Source: Acidimicrobiia bacterium | GTDB lineage: Bacteria > Acidobacteriota > Terriglobia > Bryobacterales > Bryobacteraceae | Reading direction: 5' to 3' | Assembly (NCBI GenBank): GCA_016871315.1 | Contig: VFZE01000023.1 | Span: 1-64,000, forward strand | DNA length: 64,000 bases | Part shown: positions 1 to 42,173 of the stretch, one piece after another | Numbering within the stretch: the first letter of the stretch is position 1 | Layout of the letters: the number at the start of each line of letters is the position of its first letter | Translations under genes and position numbers: made by a program | The notes under the pieces: model-generated | Told to the model about the DNA's origin: nothing | Database searches by the model: none | Seen by the model: the letters and a program-made list of their open reading frames with translations, nothing else

Positions 1-39
1 GCACAATCAGAAAACCAGCGTCGCTTCGCTCCGATTGGC

Positions 40-106
40 TGATCGGCTACGGGAGAATGGTGATCGGTTTCGAGGGAGAACGGTGATCGCTTTGGGGAGA
101 ATCCGC
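40..106. repeat. Three tandem imperfect ~22-bp repeats, probable IS end
   Basis: Three consecutive copies of a unit starting TGATCG and containing GGGAGAA lie at 40-60, 61-83 and 84-106. A short hairpin (CAACCA at 106-111, TGGTTG at 114-119) follows directly. Multiple terminal direct repeats that bind the transposase are characteristic of IS21-family ends, and an IS21-type istA remnant lies next to them, so I read this as one end of that element. The link is inferred; the full element boundary is not visible. Confidence 0.5.
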
Positions 107-335
107 AACCATCTGGTTGTGGAAGCGGGAAAGGCGAATGTCGCCTTTCTTGGGCGTCGTTTGCGATCTCGAAGGCTGATTCGAATCAATGTCACGGCCG
201 CGCATTGCCGAACGGCGTTTTTGGAGCTGCGCGCTGTGCTCATTTGGTGCTCCGAAGCCGGCCTCTCGGGGTTGATGGTGGCCGTCCGGTCGTATCACGC
301 GCCAACCGGAAGGTGCGCCGGGGGCGACCGGTCGC

Positions 336-1205
336 TCAGGCACCTGCCCAAAGGACAGGGGGTCGGTCTTGAGAAGTCCAACTGTCCTGCCCGCTTGCAG
401 GCACCCCTGGTGTGACTGTGGTCAGAATCGTAGCTGTAGAAACCAACCGGTTTAGGTGCAATGCAGGTGACCGCCGGCGACCCACTGAAAACACTGGCTC
501 GGGCACCCGCGATATCGGCCGCCCGAACTTCTCCTGAAACAGGTAGTGACTCTGCAGTTCGCTGAACGCCCGCGTCTTCTGCCGCGTGCCATCGCCCAGA
601 ATCCGCGCCACCGCCAGCTTGGTGTTGTCGTACAGCATCGTCGGCGGCACTCCGCCGAAGTAGGCGAACGCCTGGTTGTGCCCTTCCAGAAACGCTTCTG
701 TGGTTTCCGCCGGGAACGCCATCACGAAGCAGTCGTCGGACTGCGGCAGCTCCAGTACCAGGAAATGCGCCTTGCACTCCACGCCGCCGATCACCGCTTG
801 CGCTTCGCCGAAGTCGGCCTGCGCATCTCCCGGCGGATGCTCCCAGGGCATGAACATCTCGCGCTGGCTGAGCCTCTTCAGCCGCACGTAGTCTTTGATG
901 ATCGTGTAGCCGCCGCTGGAGCCATGTTCGGCCTTCAGCCGCTCGAAGATCCGCTTGGCTGTGTGGCGCTGCTTGCGCTGCCGCTGCTTGTCTTCTTCCA
1001 GGATCTGGTCGATGATCCCGACCCAGGCGTCCAGCTTCGGCCGCCGTGCTGGCCGCTGCCGCTGGTAGCCCGGCGGCACGGAGTAGCGCAGCATCTTGCG
1101 CACCGTCTCCCGCGCCAGCCCGAACTGCCGGGCTGCCTCCCGATGACTCATTCCCTCGACGAGCACCGCCCGTCGGACTCGCGCATACAGTTCCACGGTG
1201 TACAC
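336..1205 (-). pseudogene. istA: IS21-family transposase IstA, 3'-truncated
   Basis: The first ~230 residues read as an IS21 IstA. There is an N-terminal helix-turn-helix ('SHREAARQFGLARETVRKML', residues ~20-40) and then the start of the DDE catalytic core with its first Asp in 'DAQADFGEA' (~residue 130) and second Asp in 'MLYDNTK' (~205). After 'LFQEKFGRP' the homology stops and the frame runs into unrelated sequence, so the third catalytic acid and C-terminal domain are missing. IS21 needs an IstB ATPase encoded just downstream; none is found in the remaining ~330 bases. The element should be immobile. The protein is about half the usual ~500 residues. Confidence 0.85.
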
Positions 1206-1361
1206 CTCTCCGGTGTTCCATAAAACATCGCGCTATGGAAATGTTCGATGGAACCAGTCCGCCGGTGGCCTACTTTTCCTCCGGCGTTCCCGTCCCTGTC
1301 GCGGCGGTTACTAGTTTATTTTTGCTCCGGCGTTTATAATCTTGGGATTCGACGCGGCCTT
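1206..1361. mobile_element. Probable right flank of the IS21 remnant
   Basis: This stretch upstream of istA carries two related motifs, CTACTTTTCCTCCGGCG near 1270 and TTTATTTTTGCTCCGGCG near 1315. They resemble repeated transposase-binding sequences at IS21 ends. Recombinase-like coding sequence begins directly after them in the plus direction, so insertion of the element could be what removed the recombinase 5' end. The exact IS boundary and any target duplication cannot be identified because the other end is truncated. Confidence 0.4.
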
Positions 1362-1604
1362 GCTCTGGGGCATGATGCGTTTCTCGTTAATGTAGGCGGC
1401 GGAGCGCTCTCTCCTTAAGGAGTGGCCAGGATGCTCGCACAGCTCGCAGCAGAGGCTGACTTAAAGACCAGATTGACGCCGCACATGATCCGTCACACGG
1501 TCGCAACTCTACTGCTTCGGAACGGCGCCGACATCCGCGTCGTGCAGGAGGTTCTTGGACACAGCTCGATTGCCATGACGCAGCGCTACACGCATGTGAC
1601 TAAA
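1362..1604 (+). pseudogene. Tyrosine recombinase (XerC/D-like) C-terminal fragment with a nonsense codon
   Basis: From 1422 the frame reads as the catalytic C-terminus of a phage-type integrase. It has '[15 protein letters not shown]' (box II His-x-x-Arg), '[20 protein letters not shown]' with the second His and the nucleophilic Tyr. Reading the same frame upstream gives 'GHDAFLVNVGGGALSP', a TAA stop at 1416-1418, then 'GVARML'. This is continuous recombinase homology interrupted by a stop, where family members usually have Glu. The N-terminal core-binding domain and the first catalytic Arg are absent, and after 'THVTK' the homology ends. It is a dead relic, probably of the integrase that brought in the neighbouring island; that link is inference. 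Confidence 0.75.
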
Positions 1605-1809
1605 AGGAGCACCTCCGTGCCACGTTGCGAATGCACCACCCCAATCACCACCTTGCTATCGACACCAATGTTCAGGCGACCCTATTCTGATCGGCTTTCA
1701 CCACCTGGGCTTGCCGTACGGTTGAGATGACAAATCGCTCTCCGTTGCGGGCACAATTGACGCTACTTTCTCGATGTTCAGGTTCGCGCCGATTTGACAC
1801 CGGTGCCAT
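1605..1809. other. Junction DNA without a recognisable gene
   Basis: About 200 bases between the recombinase fragment and the stop of the RES-domain gene. The plus-strand frame of the recombinase stays open to 1730, but the residues after 'THVTK' match nothing I recognise. I see no clear terminator for the converging minus-strand operon. Confidence 0.4.
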
Positions 1810-2646
1810 TCACGCGAGTGCGACCACGGCATCGTTTGGATACGAAAAGTATCTTCGTCTTACAAAGTCGACAAATCCCAGCGCTGGCAAACCCTTCGGG
1901 TTTATCCAGCCCTCCGTGCTCAACGCTTCAAAGGGCTTTCGCTCAACTATTTCATAGAACCCCATTGTTGGGTGGACTTTCTTCCGGAACGGGCTAAAGT
2001 CGACTGGTCGAGCCATTAGATCCTGGTCCTCGGGAATCAACTGGAGCCGCACCTGCAAACAGTGAAACTCGTCGACAATAACACGATCCGAATGGTCGCT
2101 GAATAGCACTAGACACTTGTCGAAAGCGTGCCGTGCAGAGGGATAAAATACTCCCTTCTTTCCCTGATGGCGAAAGGCATCGTTCAGCATGTCGAATAGC
2201 TCATAGGTCGCGTCCGGCCAGACGGACAGCGTTCCCGAGATCCTCGTTCGATAGTCTTTCTCGACGCCTTCACAATCGAGGTGAACGAGCTCCTTGATAC
2301 CTCGGACGCGAAAAACAACGAGACTCCGAAGTTTCGACATTTGAGATCTAATCAGAGCATAGCCGGAAGCCTTGCCAAGCTGGTTAAGCAGGTCCCGGTA
2401 CATGTGAAAGAGAACCTCGGCCAGTGAAACCACGACGTTGTTGGAGCAATATGTTGTCAATTGGTCGGGTTTGTGAAATCTCCCCTTCTGCCTAGACGCC
2501 ACTGGTCCACGGCCGTTCAGAATCGTGTCGGGCGTATTGTGAGACAGAGATGTAAGTCGGTATAAGATGGCCCGTTCCTTGATTTCCGCCTCATGGAACT
2601 CATTACCACGATCGAAACAGTAGTCATCTTCCTGAAAACTCATCAT
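1810..2646 (-). CDS. RES-domain protein (NAD+-degrading toxin-like fold)
   Basis: The 278-residue product matches the RES domain, named for conserved Arg, Glu and Ser. The Arg is in 'ILYRLTS' (residue ~30), followed by 'GRG' and 'KGRFHKP'. The Glu is in 'SLAEVLFH' (~77) and the Ser in 'YPSARH' (~170). Characterised RES proteins such as MbcT are ADP-ribosyltransferase-like toxins that destroy NAD+; that activity is transferred from the family, not shown here. It is the last gene of a four-gene operon and follows a response regulator through an ATGA overlap at 2643-2646, which favours this start over the ATG at 2661. Another ATG at 2643 sits better spaced from GGAG. No Xre/MbcA/ParS-type antitoxin gene, the normal RES partner, lies beside it, so the regulator may control it. 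It has no signal peptide and is presumably cytosolic. Confidence 0.82.
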   Translation of the reverse strand: MMSFQEDDYCFDRGNEFHEAEIKERAILYRLTSLSHNTPDTILNGRGPVASRQKGRFHKPDQLTTYCSNNVVVSLAEVLFHMYRDLLNQLGKASGYALIRSQMSKLRSLVVFRVRGIKELVHLDCEGVEKDYRTRISGTLSVWPDATYELFDMLNDAFRHQGKKGVFYPSARHAFDKCLVLFSDHSDRVIVDEFHCLQVRLQLIPEDQDLMARPVDFSPFRKKVHPTMGFYEIVERKPFEALSTEGWINPKGLPALGFVDFVRRRYFSYPNDAVVALA

Positions 2647-3602
2647 TTTCTCCGAATCCATTCTAGGGCGTCCCGAACCCCTAAGGAGCCGCGCTCACGA
2701 AGGTAGACGGATAAACCGAGGCCACTCCATGGCGGTGGAAGGACACTTCGATCTGCGAAGCTCGCATTCCTTAGGTTCAACGCCATACAGCGTGGGTCAT
2801 ATTCACTGACCTCGAGCACAAATGCTAGGATAGATAGCAAGCCATCGAGGGTGTCAATGAAGTCTGGTGCAGGGCCTGAGAAACTAGCAGAGTCGATGGT
2901 ATCAGTTATTAAACGTGGAGTACTATCAGCGATCAGTGCAACATCGTGAGCTGTGAGCGTGGCTACCTGGATAAGAACCTGAAGCTTTCGACCCCATGAA
3001 GCTCTCATATATCCAAGGTGGTCAAACTGTGGGCGCCAGCAACGCGAATAAAGCAACGTCAGAATGGCGCTTGATTCCCCTCCATTTAAGAGCACCGAGT
3101 CACACCATTCATTAGCGGCCGCCTTCACAGCGACCTCTTCCTGCTCCGAGACAGGAATGCGGCGTGTTATCCCCGGAATGTTTGGTGCACCCATCTCCAG
3201 CAATAAGGCCCGAGTATTTGACAAGGATCCAAGCTTCATGCCCTCAATCTGAAGTTCCTTCTTCTGGCTTTCAGGGAGGCTCTTTGAGATGAACACATCC
3301 GCGCCAAACCGTCGAGCGTCGTCGCGCTGCTCTGTGTGCTTACTAACAACGATTCGTGCCGTAGGAGGATGACGCATCTTGAGAAGGCTTAGCATCTCCG
3401 GGCCGCGCGTGATTCTCTGTAACTCCCAGTCCAGGAAAGCCGCGTCGAAGACGTCCTTCTCGACAGCTGCAATGAATTCCTCGAAGGCAGTGACAGAGGT
3501 AACGTCGGCGCCCTCCTGCCGTAACTGCTCGGAAAGCGTCGAATTATCCGGGATCTCGTCATCAACTACAAGGACAGCGCTAGTGTCACAGGTATCAGTC
3601 AT
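2643..3602 (-). CDS. Response regulator with unassigned helical C-terminal domain
   Basis: Residues 1-~115 form a REC receiver domain. It has 'VLVVDDE' with the acidic pair D14/D15, the phospho-acceptor D58 in 'FDAAFLDWEL', a Ser at ~87 in 'RIVVSKH' at the Thr/Ser switch position, and K107 in 'VFISKSL'. All residues needed for phosphorylation are present. The remaining ~200 residues are mostly helical and contain no HTH, GGDEF, EAL or HD motif that I recognise, so the output is probably protein-protein. The gene starts 2 bases after the histidine kinase stop and its own stop overlaps the RES gene start. This arrangement suggests the C-terminal domain binds or restrains the RES protein. That is an inference from gene order only. 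Confidence 0.85.
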   Translation of the reverse strand: MTDTCDTSAVLVVDDEIPDNSTLSEQLRQEGADVTSVTAFEEFIAAVEKDVFDAAFLDWELQRITRGPEMLSLLKMRHPPTARIVVSKHTEQRDDARRFGADVFISKSLPESQKKELQIEGMKLGSLSNTRALLLEMGAPNIPGITRRIPVSEQEEVAVKAAANEWCDSVLLNGGESSAILTLLYSRCWRPQFDHLGYMRASWGRKLQVLIQVATLTAHDVALIADSTPRLITDTIDSASFSGPAPDFIDTLDGLLSILAFVLEVSEYDPRCMALNLRNASFADRSVLPPPWSGLGLSVYLRERGSLGVRDALEWIRRK

Positions 3603-3604
3603 CT

Positions 3605-6571
3605 CTAATCGGGTTTCTCCTGGGCATCAGCCTCTTCATGTGTGGGTAGGACCAGTCGAAAAGTTACGCCGCGCGGTCCTCGTCTCTTGCCAACGAATAG
3701 ATCACCGCCAGCGGACCTCGCTAACCTCCGGGCAAAATAAAGGCCCAGACCGGTACCAATCTTTTCCGGCTTCGTGGTATATGTGGGTTCGAAAATTACC
3801 TCCGTGTCGTCTGTGCGTAGTCCCTCTCCGTCGTCGCTAACATCTAAACAGAACGCACTAGTTATCAGAGCCCCTCCAGATGCCCGAAACTGCTCCCCTC
3901 GAGTTGTTTCGATCTGAATGGCTCTTGCATGAGCCTGCACGGCATTGACAAGCAACACTGACATGATTTCCCGGAATCCATGTTCGCTGAGTCGACACAG
4001 ACTTCGCGTCGTAGTTTTTCGGATCGATACTCGGCAGCCGGCATCTCGTAGGAGCGAATACCACAAGTCAATAGCCGGCTGAAGCAGATCCTCCATCACG
4101 CTAAGTGTTGAAGCGGTACCTAAGCGCTGCGCCTTGACGCCCTCAAGCGCCTCCTCCAATGCCTGTCGGCCCTTCTGCAGTTGCTTATCCCAGCCTTGCA
4201 GCCGCTCGAGGATCTCCCTGCGCTCTCGAATCTCCCGCCGCTGAATCAGTTTCTCGAGTTGATCAATGATGAGGTTCAATTCGTGCCCAAGCGAGTGCAC
4301 GACCATTCCAGCCATGGCTTCAGCCACGACGAAGCGGAGACTCGGAATTACCTGATTCGCAAGGTCGATTGCGCGTCGCAGGACCCGTGTCCGAGAGAGC
4401 GCGACAGAAAGGTGCCCTGCGAACGCCTGTAGTATTAATCCAGCATCCTCATCCGGCTCAATCGAGGATGATACAATCACTTGCAGAGTTCCTATCAACT
4501 CTGGCTCGACATCAAATCCATGACCTGCGACCTCTATCCGTAGCGGCAAAATGTACTGGCGCTGCTGCGGCCCCCAAAGAACACGGTAACGAGCCCCAGA
4601 CGCGACATCAACTCCATCCGCGGATATGACGACACAGCGATTCTCCCTCAAGGCAACCGCGTGGGCAGCATCGCTATCCAGGTCCACTCGAATGGAACCC
4701 AACGGGATGTCTGAGGATCTTCTAGAGGAAAGGTATCCGATCAGTTTACGGTCGACAGCGTTATAAAGGGACAAGAGGGCATCGCCCCAGCCTGAGCGCT
4801 CGAGCGCACCCATCACCGCGACTATCGCCGAGTGTTCGTCTAATGCCTTCTCGATATCCAGGGAGTTCTGGGCCAGCAGCTTAAATTCCTCCAACATCCG
4901 TTCACGATAACGATAATGCTCTATCAAAAATCCCAGAAAGGCCGCAATTATTTCGGCGATCTGCTCATCATCGTCCGTAAAATACGGCTCTGGATGGCTG
5001 TCGTTTGGTTCCAGGTACTCAACTTTAAATATTCCTACTAGCTTATTCCGATTATGAATCGCGACCCCGAGAAACGCGGGCCACTCCTCGTACTTACTGG
5101 TGCGAATGACTAAGTGCTTGTATTTTGCCTTCCGTTTTAGATAGCCCTTCCGTTCCTGCGCAGTTTTCAGGTTGATAATCTGCTTTACGGCGATATCACC
5201 GGTGAGGCCCTCACCGATTTCGTACTCGGCACCTGTATCAAGCATCCCGGCACTGAGGCCTGTTGCGGCCCGCAACACGAGGCGCTCCCTGGTAGGGCCT
5301 CGGCCGATCTCGGGAGCCTTGACCTCCTCCAGCACATAAATGGATGCGGCACCGGCATTAAAGAATCTCGCCACAACGTCGATTGTCTGTTGTAGACCAC
5401 CGCCGAGATTATCCGACCGAGCGGTAGCTGCGGTAATAGCTTGAATAGATCGAACCAATGGTGAGTCGGTCTTGACACGAATGAATCGCTCCATCGACGG
5501 AGCGATAGCCCGCTGATAACTATCAAGGATCTGTAAGTCAAACGTCGAGAACGATCGCAGGCTGGCAACATCCTCTTCATCGAAACACTGAAGCACGCCT
5601 AGAACAGATTGTGTGATTGAGAGCACCGGCACGGCCATATAGTTCCAACGAGATCGCGACGCGTCGGGTCCCCGCCCCTCGATGTAATTGTTGGACAGCA
5701 TGAACGGCTTGCCAGCACCTACGGCCTTACTCATAAGGCAGTGCTCTTCTGGGCTTCGCGCGAGAGCACGCACGATAGTTCGTGGATAACGAGAAGGCGA
5801 GAGTTCAGTAGGCGACGACGCGCAGGCTCGGAGCGAGTCATCTTCATCTACCCGGAAAAGCGTCGAGGAAGTAAAAGTCAGGCGTCGCGACATATCATCG
5901 GCCACGTGCCGAAATAGGGGAGCGATACCGGTGGCGGTGGGAATATGCGCCGCAACGGTGCGTCGAATATCCTCGTCAATTCTGTATAAGAGATAGTCGA
6001 GCGACTGAGCAGTAGCCACAGACAGCCAATCGACGAGGCGACGATCTAGCTCGATTGCCTCTTGACGCTCATCAAAGTAGATGTTAATAATACAGGTGAC
6101 AAACTGGCTATCAAATGGATCCACGACTGGTATCGAGATCGAGCTGCGTATCTTGTGTTTGGAGATCACTTGAGGTGACTCTAAGGTACGATTACCCTGC
6201 GGCTTATGGAGATTTGTGCGATAGACAACGTCGCAGTCAGTGACAGCTTGCCCTGTTAGCGATGTTGACCTGTTCATCGTCAGGGAGCCGTCCCCGGAGG
6301 ATCGCGGCGGCGAGCTTGCCAGGAAAACGAGACACTTTCCGTAGACATTATTGTTCCAGATTGTCACCAGAGCTGCGTCAAGGACGTGACGAACGGTCTT
6401 GGCCATCAGATCAAAAAAGGTAGGTACGTCCTGAACTGAAGCGCTAAAGGGTATGTCTTGAAACGTGCTCAGGAAGTCGAAGCAGGAAGAGCATTCCTGT
6501 TGGTTGAGTATCGGGAGTCGGCGTCGTGCGTTCATCGTGGAATCACACGCCAATCTGTCGTAACCAGTCAC
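3605..6571 (-). CDS. Large soluble multi-GAF sensor histidine kinase
   Basis: The 988-residue protein has no membrane segment. Roughly residues 30-735 hold about four GAF-like modules (near 30-195, 205-360, 375-545 and 570-735), which usually bind small ligands or redox cofactors. A dimerisation helix follows with 'VVHSLGHELN' (phospho-acceptor candidate H763). The HATPase_c domain comes next, with N-box 'LLVNAVQA' (N~876), G1 'DVSDDGEG' (~910), F-box 'IFEPTYTTK' and G2 'GTGLGL' (~940). The catalytic motifs look intact, so this should be an active kinase for the response regulator 2 bases downstream. The listed GTG start overlaps the upstream gene by 29 bases. An ATG at 6535, just after that gene's stop, would remove 12 residues; neither has a good Shine-Dalgarno. 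The signal sensed cannot be read from the sequence. Confidence 0.88.
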   Translation of the reverse strand: MTGYDRLACDSTMNARRRLPILNQQECSSCFDFLSTFQDIPFSASVQDVPTFFDLMAKTVRHVLDAALVTIWNNNVYGKCLVFLASSPPRSSGDGSLTMNRSTSLTGQAVTDCDVVYRTNLHKPQGNRTLESPQVISKHKIRSSISIPVVDPFDSQFVTCIINIYFDERQEAIELDRRLVDWLSVATAQSLDYLLYRIDEDIRRTVAAHIPTATGIAPLFRHVADDMSRRLTFTSSTLFRVDEDDSLRACASSPTELSPSRYPRTIVRALARSPEEHCLMSKAVGAGKPFMLSNNYIEGRGPDASRSRWNYMAVPVLSITQSVLGVLQCFDEEDVASLRSFSTFDLQILDSYQRAIAPSMERFIRVKTDSPLVRSIQAITAATARSDNLGGGLQQTIDVVARFFNAGAASIYVLEEVKAPEIGRGPTRERLVLRAATGLSAGMLDTGAEYEIGEGLTGDIAVKQIINLKTAQERKGYLKRKAKYKHLVIRTSKYEEWPAFLGVAIHNRNKLVGIFKVEYLEPNDSHPEPYFTDDDEQIAEIIAAFLGFLIEHYRYRERMLEEFKLLAQNSLDIEKALDEHSAIVAVMGALERSGWGDALLSLYNAVDRKLIGYLSSRRSSDIPLGSIRVDLDSDAAHAVALRENRCVVISADGVDVASGARYRVLWGPQQRQYILPLRIEVAGHGFDVEPELIGTLQVIVSSSIEPDEDAGLILQAFAGHLSVALSRTRVLRRAIDLANQVIPSLRFVVAEAMAGMVVHSLGHELNLIIDQLEKLIQRREIRERREILERLQGWDKQLQKGRQALEEALEGVKAQRLGTASTLSVMEDLLQPAIDLWYSLLRDAGCRVSIRKTTTRSLCRLSEHGFREIMSVLLVNAVQAHARAIQIETTRGEQFRASGGALITSAFCLDVSDDGEGLRTDDTEVIFEPTYTTKPEKIGTGLGLYFARRLARSAGGDLFVGKRRGPRGVTFRLVLPTHEEADAQEKPD

Positions 6572-7277
6572 GAGAGCTGGCTGCGCATAACGAAGGATCC
6601 CCTTCAGGCGAGTCCTGTTCGACGATGATCCAGCCGGGAAATCTTCGTTCGCGGAGGAGTTGGACTACTTCTCGGACCTGTTGAGACAGTTCGCCTCTGC
6701 CGAGAGCCGTGAAGCCGCGCGCGAAACGACTGGCGGATCGCCCAAACTTACTGGTCCAATCCTTCAAATGAACCGCGAGTATTCTCGACCAGTGCTGAGT
6801 AATGATCTGGCACAGATCGTCGCCTACAAGGAAGGCATGGGCAGTATCAAGAATGAGGCGGGCCTGCGGGAAGTCGTCCAAATACTTGAGCGCAGCCTGC
6901 ACGGTGTCAATATCCTTGTATACGTGCGGATGAATGGCAACCGTCAGGCCTGCATCGAAGGCGTATTGCGCCGCCCCAAGATCCCATTCGTCGAGGTACA
7001 AATACAGTGGCTCAGCCTCAGCGGCATATTCGACACGGCTGCGAAGGCTGCCGCCAGCGAACCCGAGGAGGGTGAGGTCGCTTTCTTGAAGGATTTTCTT
7101 GAGCGCGCTTCCCTCGGGCAATGTATGTGGTGCCTGCGCGAACTCTATGCCCGTGTATCCTATCTTAGCGGCGGTCGAGGCGAACTTGGCCAGGTCATGA
7201 ATCCTCGGCCCCCACGAGATAGTCTGGAGCCCGACCCTGGCACTGATGTCTTCGGAATCCAATGTCGTCGCCTTCAT
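6543..7277 (-). CDS. Sugar isomerase/epimerase-like TIM barrel (IolE-like)
   Basis: The 244-residue product belongs to the xylose-isomerase-like TIM-barrel (AP-endonuclease 2) superfamily. Motifs place it near inosose dehydratase: 'GYTGIEFA' (~residue 40), 'VAIHPHV' (H116/H118), 'LILDTAH' (D144/H147), 'AVHLKDW' (H170) and 'WIIVEQD' (E220). These are the usual divalent-metal and substrate positions. It is the first gene of the operon, with GGAG 8 bases before the ATG and a good sigma70-like promoter just upstream. No inositol or sugar catabolism genes accompany it. Its pairing with a kinase, regulator and RES protein suggests a signal-making or detoxifying role, for example acting on an NAD-derived or sugar metabolite; this is speculative. 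It is slightly shorter than the family norm of 260-300 residues. Confidence 0.75.
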   Translation of the reverse strand: MKATTLDSEDISARVGLQTISWGPRIHDLAKFASTAAKIGYTGIEFAQAPHTLPEGSALKKILQESDLTLLGFAGGSLRSRVEYAAEAEPLYLYLDEWDLGAAQYAFDAGLTVAIHPHVYKDIDTVQAALKYLDDFPQARLILDTAHAFLVGDDLCQIITQHWSRILAVHLKDWTSKFGRSASRFARGFTALGRGELSQQVREVVQLLRERRFPGWIIVEQDSPEGDPSLCAASSRDWLRQIGV

Positions 7278-7293
7278 TCAGGTAGCTCCGATT

Positions 7294-7323
7294 ATCATAG
7301 TTCAAACCCACCCGCCGTTGCAA
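7294..7323 (-). promoter_or_regulatory. Predicted sigma70-like promoter of the RES/two-component operon
   Basis: On the minus strand TTGCAA (7323-7318) and TATGAT (7299-7294) are separated by 18 bases, close to the TTGACA/TATAAT consensus. The predicted transcript would start about 10 bases before the ATG at 7277, leaving a very short leader that still contains GGAG. Its position fits expression of the whole four-gene operon from this point. Confidence 0.5.
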
Positions 7324-7509
7324 TCGAATATTTTGAAAACATCGATTGAGTGCTTGCAGGGAAACCTCATGCTACCACCCCTGTGTGGTGCCCAGCGACT
7401 CTGCTCTTAGCCAAGGTCGATCCCGATCCTGTGTTACGTTCCATGACAGCCCGACTTGCGAACTGCTAACGAGAGGGGAAGCAGTTCACAACTTTTCAAG
7501 GAGGATATC

Positions 7510-7578
7510 ATGGAAAGTGGCGTACAAGGAGGAACAAGGAGGCAACGACCGACACCTTCAGACGTTAAGGGCGCTTAA
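7510..7578 (+). CDS. Possible 22-codon leader ORF with strong Shine-Dalgarno
   Basis: ATG at 7510 lies 5 bases after AAGGAGG (7498-7504), the best ribosome site in this region. The frame encodes 22 residues, beginning MESGVQGG and rich in Arg and Gly, and stops at 7576-7578. It overlaps the start of the longer helical ORF in another frame (GTG at 7517). It could be a translated leader coupled to that ORF, or the ribosome site may really serve the GTG 12 bases away. No homology recognised. Confidence 0.35.
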   Translation: MESGVQGGTRRQRPTPSDVKGA

Positions 7579-7792
7579 TCAGCTCGACTTGGGCATCGAC
7601 ATGGCGACGAGCGAGGTCAAGAAATTGATCTTGCAAGTGAGTGGTCGCCTTCAGGCGTCCAAAAGGGCCGGCCTACACCAACGGCGAGAGCTACTCCTGT
7701 CACTGAATGCAATCTCCGAAAAATGGCAGGACAAGTCTGAGCAGATCTTAGAGGATCTCCGAGAGATGCTGCGGAGCAAGGCACCTACTTAG
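7517..7792 (+). CDS. Small helical/coiled-coil hypothetical protein
   Basis: From the GTG at 7517 the frame gives 91 residues, almost entirely charged and helix-forming: 'ALNQLDLGIDMATSEVKKLI' then 'LLSLNAISEKWQDKSEQILE'. This suggests a short coiled coil. Alternative starts are the upstream frame opening at 7346 or the internal ATG in 'DMATSEVKK'. Support for a real gene is the strong AAGGAGG upstream and a convincing intrinsic terminator about 50 bases after the stop. It is divergent from the RES/two-component operon and of similar lower GC, so it may belong to the same island cargo. I recognise no family. Confidence 0.45.
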   Translation: MAYKEEQGGNDRHLQTLRALNQLDLGIDMATSEVKKLILQVSGRLQASKRAGLHQRRELLLSLNAISEKWQDKSEQILEDLREMLRSKAPT

Positions 7793-7844
7793 GACGGCTC
7801 TTAGCGGTATCCGTTGTGCCACGGGCAATTACCACGGGGCAAAT

Positions 7845-7881
7845 GGCTGGGTTGATTTGATATCGACCCAGCCCTTTTCTT
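7845..7881 (+). terminator. Rho-independent terminator
   Basis: GGCTGGGT (7845-7852) pairs perfectly with ACCCAGCC (7866-7873), closing a 13-base loop, and is followed by CTTTTCTT. It is placed to end the plus-strand transcript carrying the small helical ORF that stops at 7792, which supports that ORF being expressed. Confidence 0.8.
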
Positions 7882-8512
7882 CAACGATTTGTCGCCATTG
7901 CGCCGCCCAATCGTCTCCCGGGGCCGGAAGGCTGTTTAGGAGCTCCTGCGTGCCGGAATGTCAACAAATTCGCGTTGTATTCCGGGAGCCCTCGGCCTTA
8001 GCAGTCGAGCCAAGGACATACGGCGTCGGTAGTGGGGCATAGTTAATTTCTCCCCGCAGGCGTTTCGAAGGATCGCTTATCGTTCCAAAATGGTGACTCG
8101 GAAACCGCGCTCTATGAGCGCCAGCGCCGCGGCACCAGCTCCTGGATGCCTCCCAGTATCAACCCGTCATCGCGATGGTGAACAGCACTCCTCCGGAAGG
8201 GCAGGCGTGGTGGAAGGGAGGAGGCGTGAAGCGAAACTGGTGTCACAGCCGTGCCGCGAGACAGCCCACGTGTTGTAGCAGCACGAGTTGTTGAGCAGCA
8301 CGAGTTGACGCCGGGGAGGGATGGCGCCTTCCCGTCCATACGCTAACAGCGTCCACAACTTGGAGGACGCTCTGAGGTATGAACTGATGTATCTCAGGGG
8401 TTTGGCGTAGAGCGAGCTGCGCTGTTGAACTTGGAGAGAACGCGCGTCTACAGATTCGTCTACAACGCCGTTTTGAAGGCTCCTGAATCGCGAACAACTC
8501 CAACCGAATGAA
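7882..8512. other. Non-coding stretch between terminator and tRNA-Pro
   Basis: About 630 bases with only short, inconsistent open frames on either strand and no recognisable protein family. Apart from a two-copy 17-bp repeat at 8277-8310 I see no structure. It may be degraded island DNA next to the tRNA gene. Confidence 0.5.
8277..8310. repeat. Two tandem copies of a 17-bp unit
   Basis: AGCAGCACGAGTTGTTG (8277-8293) is followed directly by AGCAGCACGAGTTGACG (8294-8310), identical in 15 of 17 positions. With only two copies no function can be assigned. Confidence 0.6.
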
Positions 8513-11799: not shown

Positions 11800-13359
11800 T
11801 CAGGTAACCGGCCCTGGATTGAACGGCGCGAGGGTATTATGCAAACCCCAGTGGTCGGCCCAGGTCTTCTTGCGGCCGGAGGCGACCTCCAGGATCAGGC
11901 GGAACATCTCCCAGCCGACCGACTCGATCGTAGCCTCGCCGGTGGCGATGCGGCCTGCGTCGATGTCGATCAGGTCGTGCCAGCGCTCCGCCAGCGCGGT
12001 GCGGGAGCTCACCTTAATGACCGGCACCAGCGCCAGGCCGTAGGGTGAACCTTCGCCGGTGGTGAAGATGTGCACGTTCATCGCCGAGGCGAGTTGCTCG
12101 GTGCCGCAGATGAAGTCGGAGGCGGGGGTGGCGGCGAAGATCAGGCCCTTCGATGCCGGCCGCTCGCCGGGTGCGGCGACGCCCATCAGCGCCGAGGCGC
12201 CGGCCTTGGCCACCGAGCCCAGCGCCTTCTCGACGACGTTGGACAGGCCGCCGCGCTTGTTGCCGGGCGTCGGGTTGGCGCTGCGGTCGGCCGAGCCGCG
12301 GGCGAGATAGTCGTCGTACCACTTCATTTCGCGGATCAGGTCGCGGCCCACCTGCTCGTTCACGGCGCGCGGCGTGAGCAGGTGTACCGCGTCGCGCACC
12401 TCCGTCACTTCGCTGAACATCACCGTCCCTCCGGCGCGAACCAGCAGGTCCGCCGCGAAGCCGACGGCCGGGTTGCATGTCACGCCGGAAAAAGCATCGC
12501 TGCCGCCGCACTGCAGGCCGACGGAGAGATCCGAAGCCGGACAAGTGTGGCGGCGGCGCTGGTCGAGTTCGGCCAGCCGCTTTTCGGCGAAGCGCATGAT
12601 GGCGGCGATGATGTCGCCAAACCCGCGATGTTCGTGGTCCTGCAGCCGGATTACGTAGGGGTCCGCCTCAAGCACAGGGAACAAGGCGGCGCCGGCCGGC
12701 CGCAGGTTTTGATCCGGCAGCAGGCGCGCCGGCTGGAGCTTCTCGCATCCCAGGCTCACAACCAGCGGCGCACCGCCGATGTTGGGATGCAGGCTGATGT
12801 TCTTCAGCGTGCGGATGGGGACGGCCGCTCCGGGAGCGTCGATGGCCACGCCGCAGCCGTATGTGTGCGTGAGGGCCACCACGTCATCGACATTCGAAAA
12901 GCGCGGCAGAATCTCCGCCTTGATGCGGCGCACGGCGTAGTCCACCGTCGGCGCGACGCATTGCACGGTAGTGGTAATGCCGAGGATGTTCTTGGTGCCG
13001 GCAGTGCCGTCTGGGTTCCGGTAGCCTTCGAAGGTGTAGCCTTCCAGCCGCGGCAGCGGCGCCGGGATGGCCGTCGCGAGCGGCAGCTCATCCAGCGCCG
13101 GAGGTTCCGGCAACTCCAGCATCTCCTCGCGCACCCAATGGCCGGCCTCCACGGCGCGGTTGGCGTACCCGATGGTCTGTCCGTAGCGAACCACAGGTTG
13201 TCCCGCGGCGATCGCCGCAAGCGCTACCTTGTGCGATTGCGGAATCGCTTCGGCCAGCTTCAGCCCGCTTTCGAAAACAGATCCCGCGGGCAGGCCGTCC
13301 GGATTGACGATGATTGCAACGTTATCGGAGGGATGAACCTGTACGCAGAGCGGCTTCAT
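11800..13359 (-). CDS. Altronate/galactarate dehydratase (UxaA/GarD family)
   Basis: With the ATG at 13359, which overlaps the upstream stop as ATGA, the product has 519 residues, close to UxaA and GarD lengths. Residues 1-~100 are the SAF domain ('[20 protein letters not shown]', '[20 protein letters not shown]'). The rest is the catalytic domain, including '[17 protein letters not shown]', '[10 protein letters not shown]', 'LGCEKLQ' and '[12 protein letters not shown]', whose cysteines and His are the expected Fe2+-binding region. The family dehydrates altronate or galactarate to 2-keto-3-deoxy acids in uronate and sugar-acid catabolism. Which substrate applies cannot be decided here. The preceding gene is a DUF5060-type carbohydrate-associated protein, consistent with polysaccharide or sugar-acid use. 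Confidence 0.92.
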
Positions 13360-14279
13360 CGTGTGCTTGTCACCAATACCGCCCAGTCGGAGTCGCGGTC
13401 TGAGGGCGGCGTGCCGAGCGATTTCTCTCCGGGTCCGGCTACCGTGGCGGTGGAGCCCGCTTTCAACGGGCCGCCTCCGCGCGGGTTGAACCACTGCACG
13501 CGATAGGAGCCGGATTCCAGTTTCAGCTTCGGCGCGCCCCCGTTCGGGGCGTAGACGGCATAGACTTCCCCCGGCTTGGCCAGCACCCAGTTGCCTTCGG
13601 AAAGCGAATCGTTCGGCGACATCTCCTGGAACGGCAGATGGCGGCGGAAAAACTCAATCGCGTGGCGGGTCTCATCCCACATCGCATCGCGCGAGCGGAA
13701 CTCTTCGAGCGATACGTCGCTGTGCGGGAACTTGTACCCGAAGTACCATTCGACTCCACTGCCGCCGGCGCTCCAGTCCTTGGCGTGCGGCTCGTAGCGG
13801 TGGATGAAAGGCTTACCGGTCGATTCGCGCCCGCCCGCGAAGGTGGCGTCGGTGTCGAACGTATCGTCGAACCCGTAATAGGCAAGAAAGTTTTCCGGGC
13901 TATCGGCGCCGCCCTTGAGGAAGTATTCGCCATTGCCCGCATGGCGAAGATAGTGGCCGCCGGCATAAGGGAGCAGTCCTTTGGCATGGTAGCCCGGCGC
14001 GTTGGAGTCTGCCGCGCCAATGGAGAAGGAGCCGGAGACGCCATCGGGAGCAACCGGCGCACCGGCATCGGGCTCCATCGACACAGCGACGTCCGTGCCG
14101 CGGCGGAAGCTGGCCGCGTAGCGCCAGTGGCCGGCCAGATTCGGCGTCGCGTCTTCGGTCGCAGGCGGTCCGTCGAAGCTGATGGTGAGCGGTTGCCACA
14201 CCTTCAGCGGGCCCACCACTTTCGGCGCCGCCGCGGCGGTGATTGCGGCGGCGAACAGGCAGATGGCGATTCTATTCAT
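13356..14279 (-). CDS. DUF5060 family protein lacking its central domain
   Basis: The ATG at 14279 opens a signal peptide ('[20 protein letters not shown]') and the product has 307 residues. The N-terminal part is the DUF5060 beta-sandwich ('[20 protein letters not shown]', then '[13 protein letters not shown]' and '[12 protein letters not shown]'). The end is the C-terminal section of the same family ('[20 protein letters not shown]', '[12 protein letters not shown]', 'YRVQWFNPR'), a putative collagen-binding-like module. In family members these ends flank a glycoside-hydrolase-like barrel of several hundred residues. Here they join directly after 'HAKDW', in frame, so any catalytic activity should be gone. 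The stop overlaps the UxaA-type gene and the start overlaps the OsmC-like gene stop, so it still sits in an intact operon. Confidence 0.75.
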
Positions 14280-14745
14280 CGGGCGTGAAAACCAACTCCG
14301 TGGTGATTTGAATCGCGCCCCGGAGAGTGCGGTAGACGGGACATTTGTCCGCATAGAAGCCGTGGACGCGCTCGGCGGCTTCGCGGTGCCCGGCGGCGGC
14401 CTTCAGTTTCAGTACGGCGTGGATGCGCCGGATCACCAGAACGTTGTCCTCCAGTTCCACTTCTCCCACCGTTTCCGATTCCAATACGCCTTCACCGGCC
14501 GGGATTTGACGCGCCTCCAGCGCGCCTCCAAAGGTTCCCGTCAGTCAACCGCCGGCGGCGGCGACGATGTAGTCGAGCGTGGTGGCGTGCGCCTCGGCGA
14601 CATCGGGCGGAACTTTGTAGTGTTCGGCGATAGCGCCATGGACGCCGAAAAGCACCGGTTCAGATTCCGCCGGAAGCCAGGCGCGGCGCAGGGGACCTTT
14701 CACGCGCTCCAGGCGGACGTGGGAACGATAGGCGACTTCTGACAT
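14272..14745 (-). CDS. OsmC-like protein, candidate selenoprotein (in-frame UGA)
   Basis: Read through one in-frame TGA (14547-14545) this is a 157-residue OsmC/YhfA-type protein. The N-terminus 'MSEVAYRSHVRLERVKGPLR' leads to 'TTLDYIVAAAGG', then UGA (residue 67), then 'LTGTFGGALEARQIPAGEGV' and 'GEVELEDNVLVIRRIHAVLK', ending 'ELVFTPDE'. OsmC proteins have their redox-active Cys at the start of the long helix, after an A-A-G-G-like stretch, exactly where the UGA falls. The frame stays open and family-like to the true stop. OsmC-like selenoproteins are known from bacterial surveys. A suitable stem-loop follows the UGA. The alternative is a simple Cys-to-stop mutation (TGC/TGT to TGA). The family reduces organic hydroperoxides. 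It lies between folP and the DUF5060 gene. Confidence 0.7.
14501..14539 (-). promoter_or_regulatory. Candidate bacterial SECIS stem-loop
   Basis: Immediately 3' of the UGA the mRNA can form a 7-bp stem (14526-14520 with 14514-14508, one G-U pair) closed by a 5-base loop UGGAG. An outer stem, GGG (14539-14537) with CCC (14503-14501) and UUU with AAA, extends it. The loop starts 25 nt after the UGA and has G as its second base. Both fit the published bacterial SECIS model of a 16-37 nt distance with a G in the first two loop positions. The hairpin is GC-rich coding sequence, so chance is not excluded. Confidence 0.5.
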
Positions 14746-14768: not shown

Positions 14769-15617
14769 CTACTCAACGCGCGCGCGAAGCAGTGAGTCGG
14801 CCACTTGAATGGTGGGAATGAGGGGAGCGACGTCGTGGAGGCGGAGGATGTGAACTCCGTTCAGAATAGCGGCGGTGACAGCGGCGGCCGTTCCCATGAG
14901 AAGGCCTTCAGGAGTGGCTTGCGCGAGGAACGACTTGCGTGAGGGTCCGAGGTGGAGCGGCAGGTTGAGCTGGTGCAGATGATAGAGCTCGGTGATCAGG
15001 CGTGCCGATTCCTCCTTGCGCTTGCCGAAGCCGATGCCGGGATCGACGGCGATGCGCAGAGGATCGATACCCGCGCGCCGGGCGCGGTGCACGCTGGCAT
15101 CCAGTTCGCGCAACACCATGTTGACCGGATCGGGAACGGGCCCGAGCTTGGCCCAGGTGTCCGGCGTGCCTCGCATGTGGTTCACGATGAGGGCCGCGTC
15201 GTGCGTGGCGGCGGCCTTGGCGATCTGCGGGTCGAAGGTGAGTCCGGTAGGGTCGTTGATGATTTCGGCGCCCAGCTCCAGAGCGCGTTGCGCCACGGCG
15301 TACTTGTAGGTGTCAACCGAGATGGGAATCGTCAGCTTGCCCCGCAGGCGCTTCAGCACCGGCACCAGGCGGCGCAGTTCTTCCTCTTCGGAGATGCGCG
15401 TGGCGCCAGGGCGCGTCGATTCCGCGCCGATGTCGAGGATGTCTGCGCCTGCCTCTTCCAATTCGACGGCGCGCCCGAAGGCGCGATCGGGGTCCAGAAA
15501 CTGACCGCCGTCGGAGAAGGAGTCCGGTGTGACGTTAAGCACGGCCGCCACCAACGTTCGATCGCCAAGCTGCAGCTCGCGTTCTTTCAGTTTCCAGAGG
15601 AAGCGTTTGCGGGGCAT
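14769..15617 (-). CDS. folP: Dihydropteroate synthase
   Basis: The 282-residue enzyme condenses p-aminobenzoate with dihydropterin pyrophosphate in folate synthesis. Hallmarks are 'AAVLNVTPDSFSDGG' (residues ~24-38, pterin/PABA loop 1), 'DIGAESTRPGA' (loop 2), 'ISVDTYK', 'IINDPTG', 'RIAVDPGIGFGK' and the C-terminal 'GPSRKSFL' with the pyrophosphate-binding Lys-Ser region. Length and order are normal and no key residue is missing. It lies in the tyrS-led minus-strand run, 3 bases after the GNAT gene stop, and is followed by the OsmC-like gene 23 bases further on. Cytosolic. Confidence 0.97.
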   Translation of the reverse strand: MPRKRFLWKLKERELQLGDRTLVAAVLNVTPDSFSDGGQFLDPDRAFGRAVELEEAGADILDIGAESTRPGATRISEEEELRRLVPVLKRLRGKLTIPISVDTYKYAVAQRALELGAEIINDPTGLTFDPQIAKAAATHDAALIVNHMRGTPDTWAKLGPVPDPVNMVLRELDASVHRARRAGIDPLRIAVDPGIGFGKRKEESARLITELYHLHQLNLPLHLGPSRKSFLAQATPEGLLMGTAAAVTAAILNGVHILRLHDVAPLIPTIQVADSLLRARVE

Positions 15618-40687: not shown

Positions 40688-41368
40688 TTAGAATTGGGTT
40701 TCGGCTTCGTTTTCGATGCCAGCCCAATCGAGGATTTCGACCGTTCTGCGGTCGAGGCGTAAAAGTCCTTCCGATTGGAAGCGGCCGAGGTTGCGCGAGA
40801 CCACCTCACGGACGGTGCCAAGCCGGGCAGCCAGTTCCTCTTGCGTCTCCTCCAGTGGAAAGGCTCCGGAATCTGCCAGGCGAGCGCGGTCCAGCAGATC
40901 CTGGGCGAGGCGCTGGCGGATGGTGCCAAAGGTGACGCGCTCGGCGAGTCCGAGCAGGTGGCGGAGGCGCTTGCCGAAGACACGCAGGAAGCGCAGGGCC
41001 AGTTCCGGGTGGGCGCGGCAGGCGGCGAGAAAATCCTGTTTGAAAACAAGGATGGCGATGGTTGGCTGAAAAGCGAAGACGCTGGCGGGGTAGGGGCCGC
41101 CGTCAAAAACAGGAACCTCGGCGACCGAGGATGGAGCGGCCATGGTAGCGAGAACCAACTGGCGGCCTTGGGGTGTGGTCTTCACCACTCTGACGGCGCC
41201 TTCTCCGATGACCCACAGGCCTTGGCATTGCTCGCCCTCCAGGAAGAGTGTCTCGCCGGGCGCATACTGGCGGCTGACCGAGGTGTCCGCCAGATGCTCG
41301 AATTCGGGTTCCGGCAGAGAGGCGAACAGGTCAATGGCCTTGAGCATGGCGGGTTTGGAGAGGCTCAT
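40688..41368 (-). CDS. Crp/Fnr family transcriptional regulator
   Basis: The 226-residue protein has an N-terminal cyclic-nucleotide-binding-like beta-roll ('PGETLFLEGEQCQGLWVIGE', ~residues 32-52) and a long dimerisation helix. A C-terminal winged HTH follows ('TQEELAARLGTVREVVSRNL', ~175-195). The recognition helix has the R-E-x-V-x-R pattern of CRP, which reads TGTGA half-sites and fits the two palindromes found on either side of the gene. It lacks the N-terminal Cys cluster of FNR, so it is not a 4Fe-4S oxygen sensor; a DNR-like haem/NO sensor is possible. It is divergent from the RIC-type gene. Confidence 0.9.
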   Translation of the reverse strand: MSLSKPAMLKAIDLFASLPEPEFEHLADTSVSRQYAPGETLFLEGEQCQGLWVIGEGAVRVVKTTPQGRQLVLATMAAPSSVAEVPVFDGGPYPASVFAFQPTIAILVFKQDFLAACRAHPELALRFLRVFGKRLRHLLGLAERVTFGTIRQRLAQDLLDRARLADSGAFPLEETQEELAARLGTVREVVSRNLGRFQSEGLLRLDRRTVEILDWAGIENEAETQF

Positions 41369-41390
41369 GAATGACAGTCTCCCATGGGTG

Positions 41391-41406
41391 TGTGACTTCA
41401 GTCATA
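41391..41406. promoter_or_regulatory. CRP/FNR-type operator between regulator and RIC-type gene
   Basis: TGTGA-CTTCAG-TCATA (41391-41406) matches TGTGA-N6-TCACA in 9 of 10 positions. It lies 22 bases upstream of the regulator start and 53 bases upstream of the RIC-type gene start on the other strand, so it could serve autoregulation and activation of the repair gene. Confidence 0.65.
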
Positions 41407-41459
41407 GCGCAAGTTGGTTCCACACCCTAAGCTGGAACCGTAAGTCAGGAGGTAAACCC

Positions 41460-42173
41460 ATGAATGCAGTAGCAAGCAAGAGAGTTGGAGATGTGGCCGC
41501 GCAGTCCACGGCGGCGGCCGGTGTGTTGGAAGAGCTTGGCATCGATTATTGCTGTGGCGGGCAAAGGTCGCTGGAGGAGGCCTGCCGGGATAAAGGAATC
41601 CAGGCGAGCACGGTGCTGGAGCAGGTAGAGGCGGCGGAAGCGTCGCGAAAAGGCCCGGACCGCAACTGGACCGAAGCGCCGCTGACAGAACTGATACAGC
41701 ACATACTGAAGAGCCATCATGAATACTTGCGGCGGGAGCTGCCGCTAATCGCCGAGCGGATCGAGGCGGTGAGAACGGCGCATGCGGAACAGCATGAGAC
41801 GATGCTGGGCGAACTGCAGGATGTGTTCGAGGAACTGCGCGCCGAACTGGGTTCGCATATGCAGAAGGAGGAGATGATTCTCTTCCCGTATGTGGAAAGG
41901 GCGGAGATGGCGTCGCAGGCTGGTCATCGTGCGGCGGCGCCGCCGTTCGGGACGTTCCGCAATCCGATCGAGATCATGGAAATGGAGCACGATGAGGCGG
42001 GACGCGCGCTGCGTGAAATCCGCCGGCTGACGGAGGGGTTCACGCTGCCCGAGGATGCGTGCAATAAGTTCGGCACGCTGTACGCGGGCCTGAAGGAGCT
42101 GGAGCGCGATATGCACACGCATATTCACCTGGAGAACAACATTCTGTTTCCGCGCGCGCTGGCGCTGGAATGA
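41460..42173 (+). CDS. Di-iron iron-sulfur-cluster repair protein (RIC/ScdA/YtfE)
   Basis: ATG at 41460 follows AGGAGGTAAACCC. The 237-residue product has the short N-terminal ScdA domain ('VLEELGIDYCCGGQRSLEEA', with the characteristic CC pair, ~residues 22-41). A hemerythrin-like di-iron domain follows, with His/Glu ligands in 'KSHHEYLRRELP', 'HAEQHETML', 'HMQKEEMILFPYV', 'EMEHDEAGRAL' and 'MHTHIHLENNILFPRAL'. The family repairs iron-sulfur clusters damaged by nitric oxide or peroxide and acts in the cytosol. The upstream palindrome and neighbouring Crp/Fnr regulator indicate stress-induced expression. Confidence 0.94.
   Translation: MNAVASKRVGDVAAQSTAAAGVLEELGIDYCCGGQRSLEEACRDKGIQASTVLEQVEAAEASRKGPDRNWTEAPLTELIQHILKSHHEYLRRELPLIAERIEAVRTAHAEQHETMLGELQDVFEELRAELGSHMQKEEMILFPYVERAEMASQAGHRAAAPPFGTFRNPIEIMEMEHDEAGRALREIRRLTEGFTLPEDACNKFGTLYAGLKELERDMHTHIHLENNILFPRALALE

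What the first reader, a model, noticed from the sequence alone, without database searches (positions are those of the whole stretch)
14272..14745. OsmC-like gene with in-frame UGA at the redox cysteine: candidate selenoprotein
The two half-ORFs are one frame separated by a single TGA. The sequence on both sides is continuous OsmC family, and the UGA replaces the residue that is the peroxidatic Cys in this family. A hairpin with loop UGGAG starts 25 nt after the UGA, within the bacterial SECIS spacing rule, and the frame downstream remains intact. OsmC-like selenoproteins are known in other bacteria. No selA, selB, selC or selD is in this window.
Basis: partly seen in the sequence, partly recalled or inferred. 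Interest (0 to 1): 0.85.

Follow-up and report, generated by a model that had tools for sequence, protein, structure and literature searches.

The report
OsmC-family selenoprotein read through UGA
A soil bacterium of the Acidobacteria appears to make a small OsmC-type redox protein in which a "stop" codon is read as the selenium amino acid selenocysteine, and relatives of this gene in several bacterial phyla almost all do the same.

Summary
On the minus strand (14745..14272) one OsmC-like frame of 157 residues is interrupted only by TGA at codon 67. The genome encodes tRNA-Sec(UCA), SelA, SelB and SelD, and SelD has its own in-frame UGA. The UGA is not an isolated mutation: 37 of 37 relatives from a scan of 84,980 species genomes have TGA at this codon, as do 19 of 20 matches in 61 related genomes and 33 of 33 in 396 genomes of the phylum (samples overlap). 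Among 400 Chloroflexota genomes, 35 of 38 matching genomes have the TGA form; the rest have Cys, Trp or broken pieces. Coding is constrained on both sides of the UGA, and the second redox Cys (C135) is kept. The hairpin fits the published bacterial SECIS rule; alone it is not significant and shows no compensatory changes, but across the family its synonymous codons are strongly constrained. OsmC-like selenoproteins are known. This subfamily (U[LM]xGT) differs from the catalogued UxxT form, scores far below NCBIfam's OsmC_like_Se cut-off, and is nearly Sec-exclusive. I read it as a real selenoprotein, probably a Sec-dependent organic hydroperoxide reductase, and an apparently unlisted subfamily of a known kind. 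Selenium incorporation and activity are untested.

The parts
14272..14745 (-). OsmC-like selenoprotein gene, ATG to TAG, 157 residues with Sec at 67
   Evidence: Pfam OsmC 42.7 bits, cut-off 27.5
14545..14547 (-). in-frame TGA, codon 67, read as selenocysteine
   Evidence: TGA at this codon in 37 of 37 loci
14508..14526 (-). SECIS-like hairpin: 8 bp, loop GGA at 14518-14516, 26 nt after the UGA
   Evidence: stem codons constrained over 40 genes; for this gene alone not significant
14341..14343 (-). codon of Cys135 (CPV motif), the likely resolving cysteine
   Evidence: invariant in 28 of 28 aligned proteins; a C[PS] motif found in 82 of 83 distinct genes
14769..15617 (-). upstream neighbour, dihydropteroate synthase-like (Pterin_bind); context only
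13356..14279 (-). downstream neighbour with a Collagen_bind_2 domain; its ATG (14279-14277) overlaps the end of the OsmC gene; context only

Best explanation
The gene encodes an OsmC/Ohr-fold protein in which UGA at codon 67 is decoded as selenocysteine by the cell's own SelA-SelB-SelD-tRNA-Sec system, guided by a hairpin just downstream. Sec67 takes the place of the peroxidatic Cys, and Cys135 that of the resolving Cys. Likely cycle: an organic hydroperoxide oxidises Sec67 to a selenenic acid, Cys135 closes a selenenylsulfide, and a dithiol reductant (lipoylated protein or thioredoxin type) resets it. Shown by sequence or prediction: the frame, the conserved UGA, the machinery, the predicted fold and the two redox positions. 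Inferred: actual Sec insertion, SECIS function, the peroxidase activity (about 0.6) and the reductant. The confidence given is for the selenoprotein with OsmC fold.
For: Sec machinery in the same genome: tRNA-Sec 69.5 bits with anticodon UCA, SelB 382 bits, SelA 485, SelD 353, SelD with its own in-frame UGA (51). TGA at codon 67 in 37 of 37 loci, in 19 of 20 matches in 61 genomes, in 33 of 33 matches in 396 genomes, in 35 of 38 matching genomes of 400. In 26 genomes with the gene (of the 37 loci), 73 OsmC-domain matches: 44 without a stop, 29 with one TGA, none with TAA or TAG (32). pN/pS similar before and after the UGA against 13 relatives. Second Cys kept. SECIS rule met by 75 of 83 distinct genes against 52.5 expected after codon shuffling; stem codons constrained. 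Model with mean pLDDT 94, best solved matches OsmC/Ohr. SelB in 33 of 37 UGA genomes against 15 of 40 without a match.
Against: No selenium or protein data. The hairpin of this gene alone is not significant; no pair changes on both sides in 36 relatives and the outermost pair fails in 18 of 36. Four UGA genomes show no SelB (59) and one of 19 no tRNA-Sec, perhaps incomplete assemblies. A Cys form (G010, G858), a Trp form (G782), a frameshifted copy (L076) and broken pieces (G598, and a second copy in G730) exist. For the peroxidase step: no NCBIfam peroxiredoxin model reaches its cut-off.
Confidence: 0.92

Rival explanations
1. It is a selenoprotein with the OsmC fold, but not a hydroperoxide reductase: Sec67 and Cys135 serve another redox reaction. 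(A rival for the function step only; it overlaps with the best explanation.)
For: No NCBIfam OsmC, Ohr or SACOL1771 model is met: 14-25 bits against cut-offs of 85.8 or more in the printed scores. Identity to the solved OsmC/Ohr chains is 7-19% (first 33 rows). The genome has two further OsmC-domain genes without stops that could do the peroxide work. An OsmC-like protein without thiol peroxidase activity is in print (PMC4069020, title and passages).
Against: Both redox positions of OsmC/Ohr are kept as Sec67 and Cys135, and the predicted fold matches OsmC/Ohr over nearly its whole length.
Confidence: 0.35
2. UGA is passed by another route: near-cognate read-through, another suppressor tRNA, or a short product is the purpose and the rest is made rarely.
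For: Only sequence is at hand; the hairpin alone is weak.
Against: A tRNA-Sec(UCA) with SelA, SelB and SelD is present; the codon lies at the redox position where the exceptions in G010 and G858 have Cys; coding constraint after the UGA is like that before it; UGA carriers hold SelB more often than genomes without the gene.
Confidence: 0.05
3. An isolated nonsense mutation or sequencing error in an ordinary Cys OsmC gene.
For: None found for the window's gene; one locus of 37 (L076) is frameshifted beyond its TGA.
Against: The same TGA in independent assemblies and phyla; no TAA or TAG among 29 interrupted OsmC-domain matches in 26 genomes; constraint downstream.
Confidence: 0.01

Closest known systems
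OsmC-like selenoprotein of the Sargasso Sea and GOS sets (COG1765 / PF02566, motif UxxT)
   Same: OsmC superfamily, one Sec at a redox Cys, bacterial SECIS (passages of PMC1088965, PMC2398784, PMC9312934, PMC13188914)
   Different: Listed motif has Thr three residues after Sec; here that place is Gly and Thr follows it, in 83 of 83 distinct genes. A gene of the UxxT kind, L179, has ULxT-like GLUMLTQL and did not reach E 0.001 with the profile of this group. The marine sequences themselves could not be fetched, so the listed motif may be loosely written.
NCBIfam NF041052, OsmC_like_Se, OsmC-related (seleno)protein
   Same: An OsmC-domain family that includes selenoproteins, by its name
   Different: The window's protein gives no match at E 0.1; the best printed score of this group is 28.3 bits against a cut-off of 95; 5 of 28 members match at E 0.01
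OsmC and Ohr peroxidases (thiol type)
   Same: Predicted fold (2onf Z 14.8, 1ukk 13.1, 1nye 12.9, 1n2f 12.8) and the two redox positions
   Different: Sec in place of the first Cys; the NCBIfam cut-offs are not met
Selenoproteins with very few Cys homologues (FdhA, SelW-like, GrdA, GrdB)
   Same: The Sec form dominates over Cys forms (passage of PMC1794560; here)
   Different: Other protein families

Membership tests
Bacterial selenoproteins | In-frame UGA conserved in relatives at a redox position | tested here: met
   37 of 37 loci, 19 of 20, 33 of 33, 35 of 38 genomes
Bacterial selenoproteins | Hairpin after the UGA that meets the bSECIS rule of PMC13188914 (loop 3-9 nt, stem 4-16 bp, early G, 16-37 nt spacing, MFE -7.5 or lower) | tested here: met
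   Window: 8 bp, GGA, 26 nt, -18.7. Function not shown, and not beyond chance for this gene alone
Bacterial selenoproteins | Sec machinery in the genome | tested here: met
   tRNA-Sec, SelA, SelB, SelD all above curated cut-offs
Bacterial selenoproteins | Selenium in the protein | not testable with these tools
   needs labelling or mass spectrometry
OsmC superfamily (Pfam PF02566) | Score above Pfam's gathering score | tested here: met
   42.7 bits, cut-off 27.5
OsmC superfamily (Pfam PF02566) | OsmC fold | tested here: met
   predicted model, pLDDT 94.3; best Z 14.8 to 2onf, a putative OsmC protein
OsmC superfamily (Pfam PF02566) | Two redox residues, N-terminal and C-terminal | tested here: met
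   Sec67 and Cys135 align with the two Cys of 1ukk (weak alignment); C135 invariant in 28 of 28
OsmC / Ohr / SACOL1771 peroxiredoxins (TIGR03562, TIGR03561, TIGR03563) | Score above the curated cut-off | tested here: not met
   15.3 and 14.3 bits against 166.15 and 85.8 for the window's protein
OsmC / Ohr peroxiredoxins | Organic hydroperoxide reductase activity | not testable with these tools
   needs purified protein
NF041052 OsmC_like_Se | Score above the curated cut-off of 95 bits | tested here: not met
   no match at E 0.1; best printed score in the group 28.3 bits
Catalogued OsmC-like selenoprotein (UxxT) | Thr three residues after Sec | tested here: not met
   ULTGT in the window; U[LM]xGT in 83 of 83 distinct genes. 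Not aligned with the marine sequences.

The most novel reading that the evidence does not exclude
An uncatalogued branch of the OsmC superfamily that has used selenocysteine since its origin, spread over Acidobacteriota, Chloroflexota, Thermodesulfobacteriota, Myxococcota, Actinomycetota and KSB1, in which Sec is almost never replaced by Cys because its chemistry needs selenium. The two Cys forms and one Trp form would be recent departures and natural experiments.
Probability: 0.35. Interest if true: 0.6.

Novelty: new variant of a known kind. Interest (0 to 1): 0.48.

Why it matters
Gene callers that treat TGA as a stop split such genes (one search lists two half-ORFs), and no NCBIfam model covers the window's protein, so the group is easily missed. 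Near-exclusive use of Sec is unusual: most selenoprotein families have many Cys homologues (passage of PMC1794560). The group offers a way to ask what selenium adds to the OsmC fold, and one reason why many Bryobacterales relatives keep the Sec machinery (SelB in 53 of 61 genomes), though 33 of those 53 lack a match to this gene, so it cannot be the only reason.

Tried and rejected
Isolated nonsense mutation: rejected on conservation. Wholesale change of the code: not favoured; for example the altronate dehydratase-like gene 13494..11800 ends at a TGA just before the next gene starts. The hairpin as stand-alone proof: rejected. A second candidate in the window: ten TGAs passed a crude codon-composition filter, this one among them. 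Six of the other nine were read through and scanned against Pfam: five gave no domain and in the sixth (42171) the domains lie before the TGA. The other three (11802, 26133, 42384) were not scanned in that way. Solved structures by sequence: nothing at E 0.01, 1ukk at 0.012. Literature: selenoprotein with OsmC (the same 7 papers), with Acidobacteria (13 papers), with Acidobacteriota and MAG terms (none), selenocysteine with OsmC family and peroxiredoxin (none), deep-Sep (2 papers), groundwater selenoproteins (39 papers, 10 listed), NF041052 (none). I saw no report of this motif; subscription papers and supplements were out of reach, and of the papers I saw listings and passages only. Distances in the predicted active site were not measured, because model coordinates are not in the Python box.

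Rows dropped before counts. Of 99 UGA genes above 150 bits, 83 distinct sequences were counted. L076 (frameshifted), L183 (short) and the Cys gene L038/L186 scored below 150 and are told apart. The codon table uses the 40 of 83 genes with GGALEAR. In one search, 13 of 15 named relatives were compared; L042 and L046 were absent as duplicates. One search took 26 of the 37 loci. In one search the place of the TGA was checked only in the stretches fetched (L189-L198, L203-L207); for the other rows only 'one TGA' is known. The genome samples overlap (for instance L021 and L040 are the same stretch), so their counts must not be added. In one search the genomes without a match were the first listed ones, not a random draw. 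An earlier count gave the motif as GU[LM]xGT; the residue before Sec is not always Gly (L144, L145, L182, L193), so U[LM]xGT is right.

Full report
What is there. The frame lies on the minus strand, 14745 to 14272, and reads from ATG to TAG with one in-frame TGA at codon 67, window 14547-14545. With TGA read as a residue, the 157-residue product scores 42.7 bits against Pfam OsmC (cut-off 27.5) over residues 55-150, so the domain runs across the TGA. The gene stands between a dihydropteroate synthase-like gene upstream and a gene with a Collagen_bind_2 domain downstream, whose ATG overlaps its end.

The machinery. The genome (6.25 Mb, 98.3% complete) has a tRNA-Sec of 69.5 bits that ARAGORN reads with anticodon UCA, SelB at 382 bits, SelA at 485 bits and SelD at 353 bits. 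SelD has its own in-frame UGA in AGUASK, which fits the UxxK motif listed for selenophosphate synthetase in PMC13188914 (passage). Two unrelated genes of one genome thus carry UGA at such a position. None of the above-cut-off matches lies in the window.

The UGA is kept. A scan of 84,980 species genomes used six peptide patterns, none of which covers residue 67, and returned 37 relatives; all 37 have TGA at codon 67. Their titles name Bryobacterales and other Acidobacteria, Geobacter, SAR202 and other Dehalococcoidia, Caldilineaceae, KSB1, Euzebyaceae, Solirubrobacterales, Acidimicrobiaceae, Myxococcota and others. One of the 37, L076, is frameshifted beyond its TGA. In 61 genomes (own and relatives) 20 have a match, 19 with TGA and one, G010, with TGT; that gene is diverged and lacks the U[LM]xGT surroundings. 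In 396 genomes of the phylum there are 33 matches in 32 genomes, each with one TGA, and all 33 were seen with U[LM]xGT. In 400 genomes of the phylum of G466, a Dehalococcoidia genome, 38 match: 35 have the TGA form, G858 has Cys, G782 has Trp, and G598 holds only broken pieces. G730 has a frameshifted second copy. These samples overlap.

Controls inside the same genomes. In 26 genomes holding the gene, 73 OsmC-domain matches were found: 44 without a stop, 29 with exactly one TGA, none with TAA or TAG. By their positions, 26 of the 29 are the loci, one is a second copy in G465 (L071/L185), one is a more distant member in G461 (L177) and one, L179, is a second type with GLUMLTQL. In the window's own genome the two other OsmC-domain genes have no stop. 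Random nonsense mutations would not choose one subfamily, one codon and one stop.

Selection. Against 13 relatives pN/pS is 0.18-0.49 before the UGA and 0.25-0.44 after it. Synonymous sites are heavily changed (pS about 0.5-0.75), so this is rough, and in most pairs the downstream value is somewhat higher; but both halves are clearly constrained. Cys135 in the CPV motif is invariant in 28 of 28, and a C[PS] motif follows in 82 of 83 distinct genes.

The hairpin. The stem of 8 bp (14526-14508) encloses GGA, 26 nt after the UGA, and meets the rule printed in PMC13188914 (passage). Against it: 16 of 200 dinucleotide shuffles fold as well; the codon-shuffle p for this gene is 0.18; in 36 relatives no pair has changes on both sides and the outermost pair fails in 18. 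For it: over 83 distinct genes the mean codon-shuffle z is -1.1, with 28 of 83 at p 0.1 or less; 75 of 83 meet the rule against 52.5 expected after codon shuffling and 616 of 1670 at other places in the same genes. In the 40 genes with the peptide GGALEAR the stem codons are far more uniform than the same genes' usage: Gly+7 GGC 38 of 40 (background 0.50), Ala+8 GCG 33 (0.37), Leu+9 CTG 33 (0.41), Ala+11 GCG 38 (0.37), Arg+12 CGT or CGC 39 (0.46); Ala+16 outside the stem shows no bias, 12 of 38 GCG. The Gly codons +3 and +6, also outside, lean to GGA, which this does not explain. Kinship inflates these p-values. The seven genes with GCC at +8 are Chloroflexota ones, several of which fold with loop CUUGA, without the early G. 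In the more distant clade of the same order the stem sits a few bases nearer to the UGA.

Co-occurrence. Among 61 genomes SelB is found in 19 of 19 with the UGA gene and 33 of 41 without a match (Fisher p 0.047). In a second sample it is found in 33 of 37 against 15 of 40 (p 4e-6). Neither is corrected for kinship, and the genomes without a match were the first listed. Four UGA genomes (G574, G608, G738, G744) show no SelB, perhaps through incomplete assembly. G858, G782 and G598, without a working Sec form, all still have SelB. tRNA-Sec was found in 18 of the 19, not in G037.

Fold and mechanism. The model built from 28 sequences has mean pLDDT 94.3, and its best solved matches are OsmC/Ohr proteins (2onf Z 14.8, 1ml8 13.9, 1ukk 13.1, 1nye 12.9, 1n2f 12.8), at 7-19% identity in the first 33 rows. 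The weak profile alignment to 1ukk puts Sec67 on its first and Cys135 on its second redox-type Cys. In Ohr/OsmC the N-terminal Cys is oxidised by organic hydroperoxide, a disulfide forms with the C-terminal Cys, and lipoylated proteins reduce Ohr (PMC4069020, passage). I infer the same cycle with selenium. That paper itself reports an organic-peroxide-response protein without thiol peroxidase activity, so kinship alone does not prove function.

Evolution. In a tree of 99 rows the Cys forms of G858 and G010 lie on long branches inside UGA groups, and the Trp form beside UGA relatives, which fits loss of Sec; support is rough, those rows are long, and the root is a midpoint for drawing only. PMC1794560 (passages) says that most families have many Cys homologues and names FdhA, SelW-like, GrdA and GrdB as exceptions; this group would join them.

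Known or new. OsmC-like selenoproteins have been listed since 2005 with motif UxxT (passages of PMC1088965, PMC2398784, PMC9312934, PMC13188914), and NCBIfam holds NF041052, OsmC-related (seleno)protein. This group has Gly at the third place after Sec and Thr at the fourth in 83 of 83 distinct genes. The window's protein does not match NF041052 at E 0.1, and the best printed score in the group is 28.3 bits against its cut-off of 95. PMC13188914 counts selenoproteins with differing Sec motifs as distinct subfamilies (passage). By that rule this is an unlisted subfamily. I could not align it with the marine sequences, so the listed motif might be loosely written. The main text of the deep-Sep paper (PMC12013277) gives no match for OsmC.

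Verdict. A real selenoprotein gene with very high probability, in a known superfamily, of a subfamily that appears unlisted and is nearly Sec-exclusive. Its peroxidase function is a well-grounded guess.

Noticed in passing
L187 (G000:C12:113900-115200), minus strand: The genome's SelD is itself a selenoprotein candidate, with in-frame UGA in AGUASK.
   Followed up: partly
L179 (G478:C19:72500-73700), minus strand: A second kind of OsmC-domain gene with one in-frame TGA, motif GLUMLTQL (UxxT), in the same genome as L074; perhaps the kind listed from marine sets.
   Followed up: partly
L199 (G858), L200 (G782), L038 (G010): Rare forms without UGA: Cys in G858 and G010, Trp in G782. All three genomes still have SelB.
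   Followed up: partly
L201 and L202 (G598): Only broken pieces of the gene, in several places and frames, in a genome that has a SelB-like gene just below the family cut-off.
   Followed up: no
L059, L062, L063, L065, L072: Chloroflexota members fold with a shorter stem and loop CUUGA that lacks a G in its first two places, so their SECIS may be of another class.
   Followed up: no
codons +3 and +6 after the UGA, 40 genes with GGALEAR: These Gly codons prefer GGA (17 and 21 of 40, background 0.14) though they lie outside the stem; unexplained.
   Followed up: no
window 41094-42170, + strand: Gene with ScdA_N and hemerythrin domains.
   Followed up: no
window 1-8000: G+C is 55% here against 62-66% in the rest of the window.
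   Followed up: no
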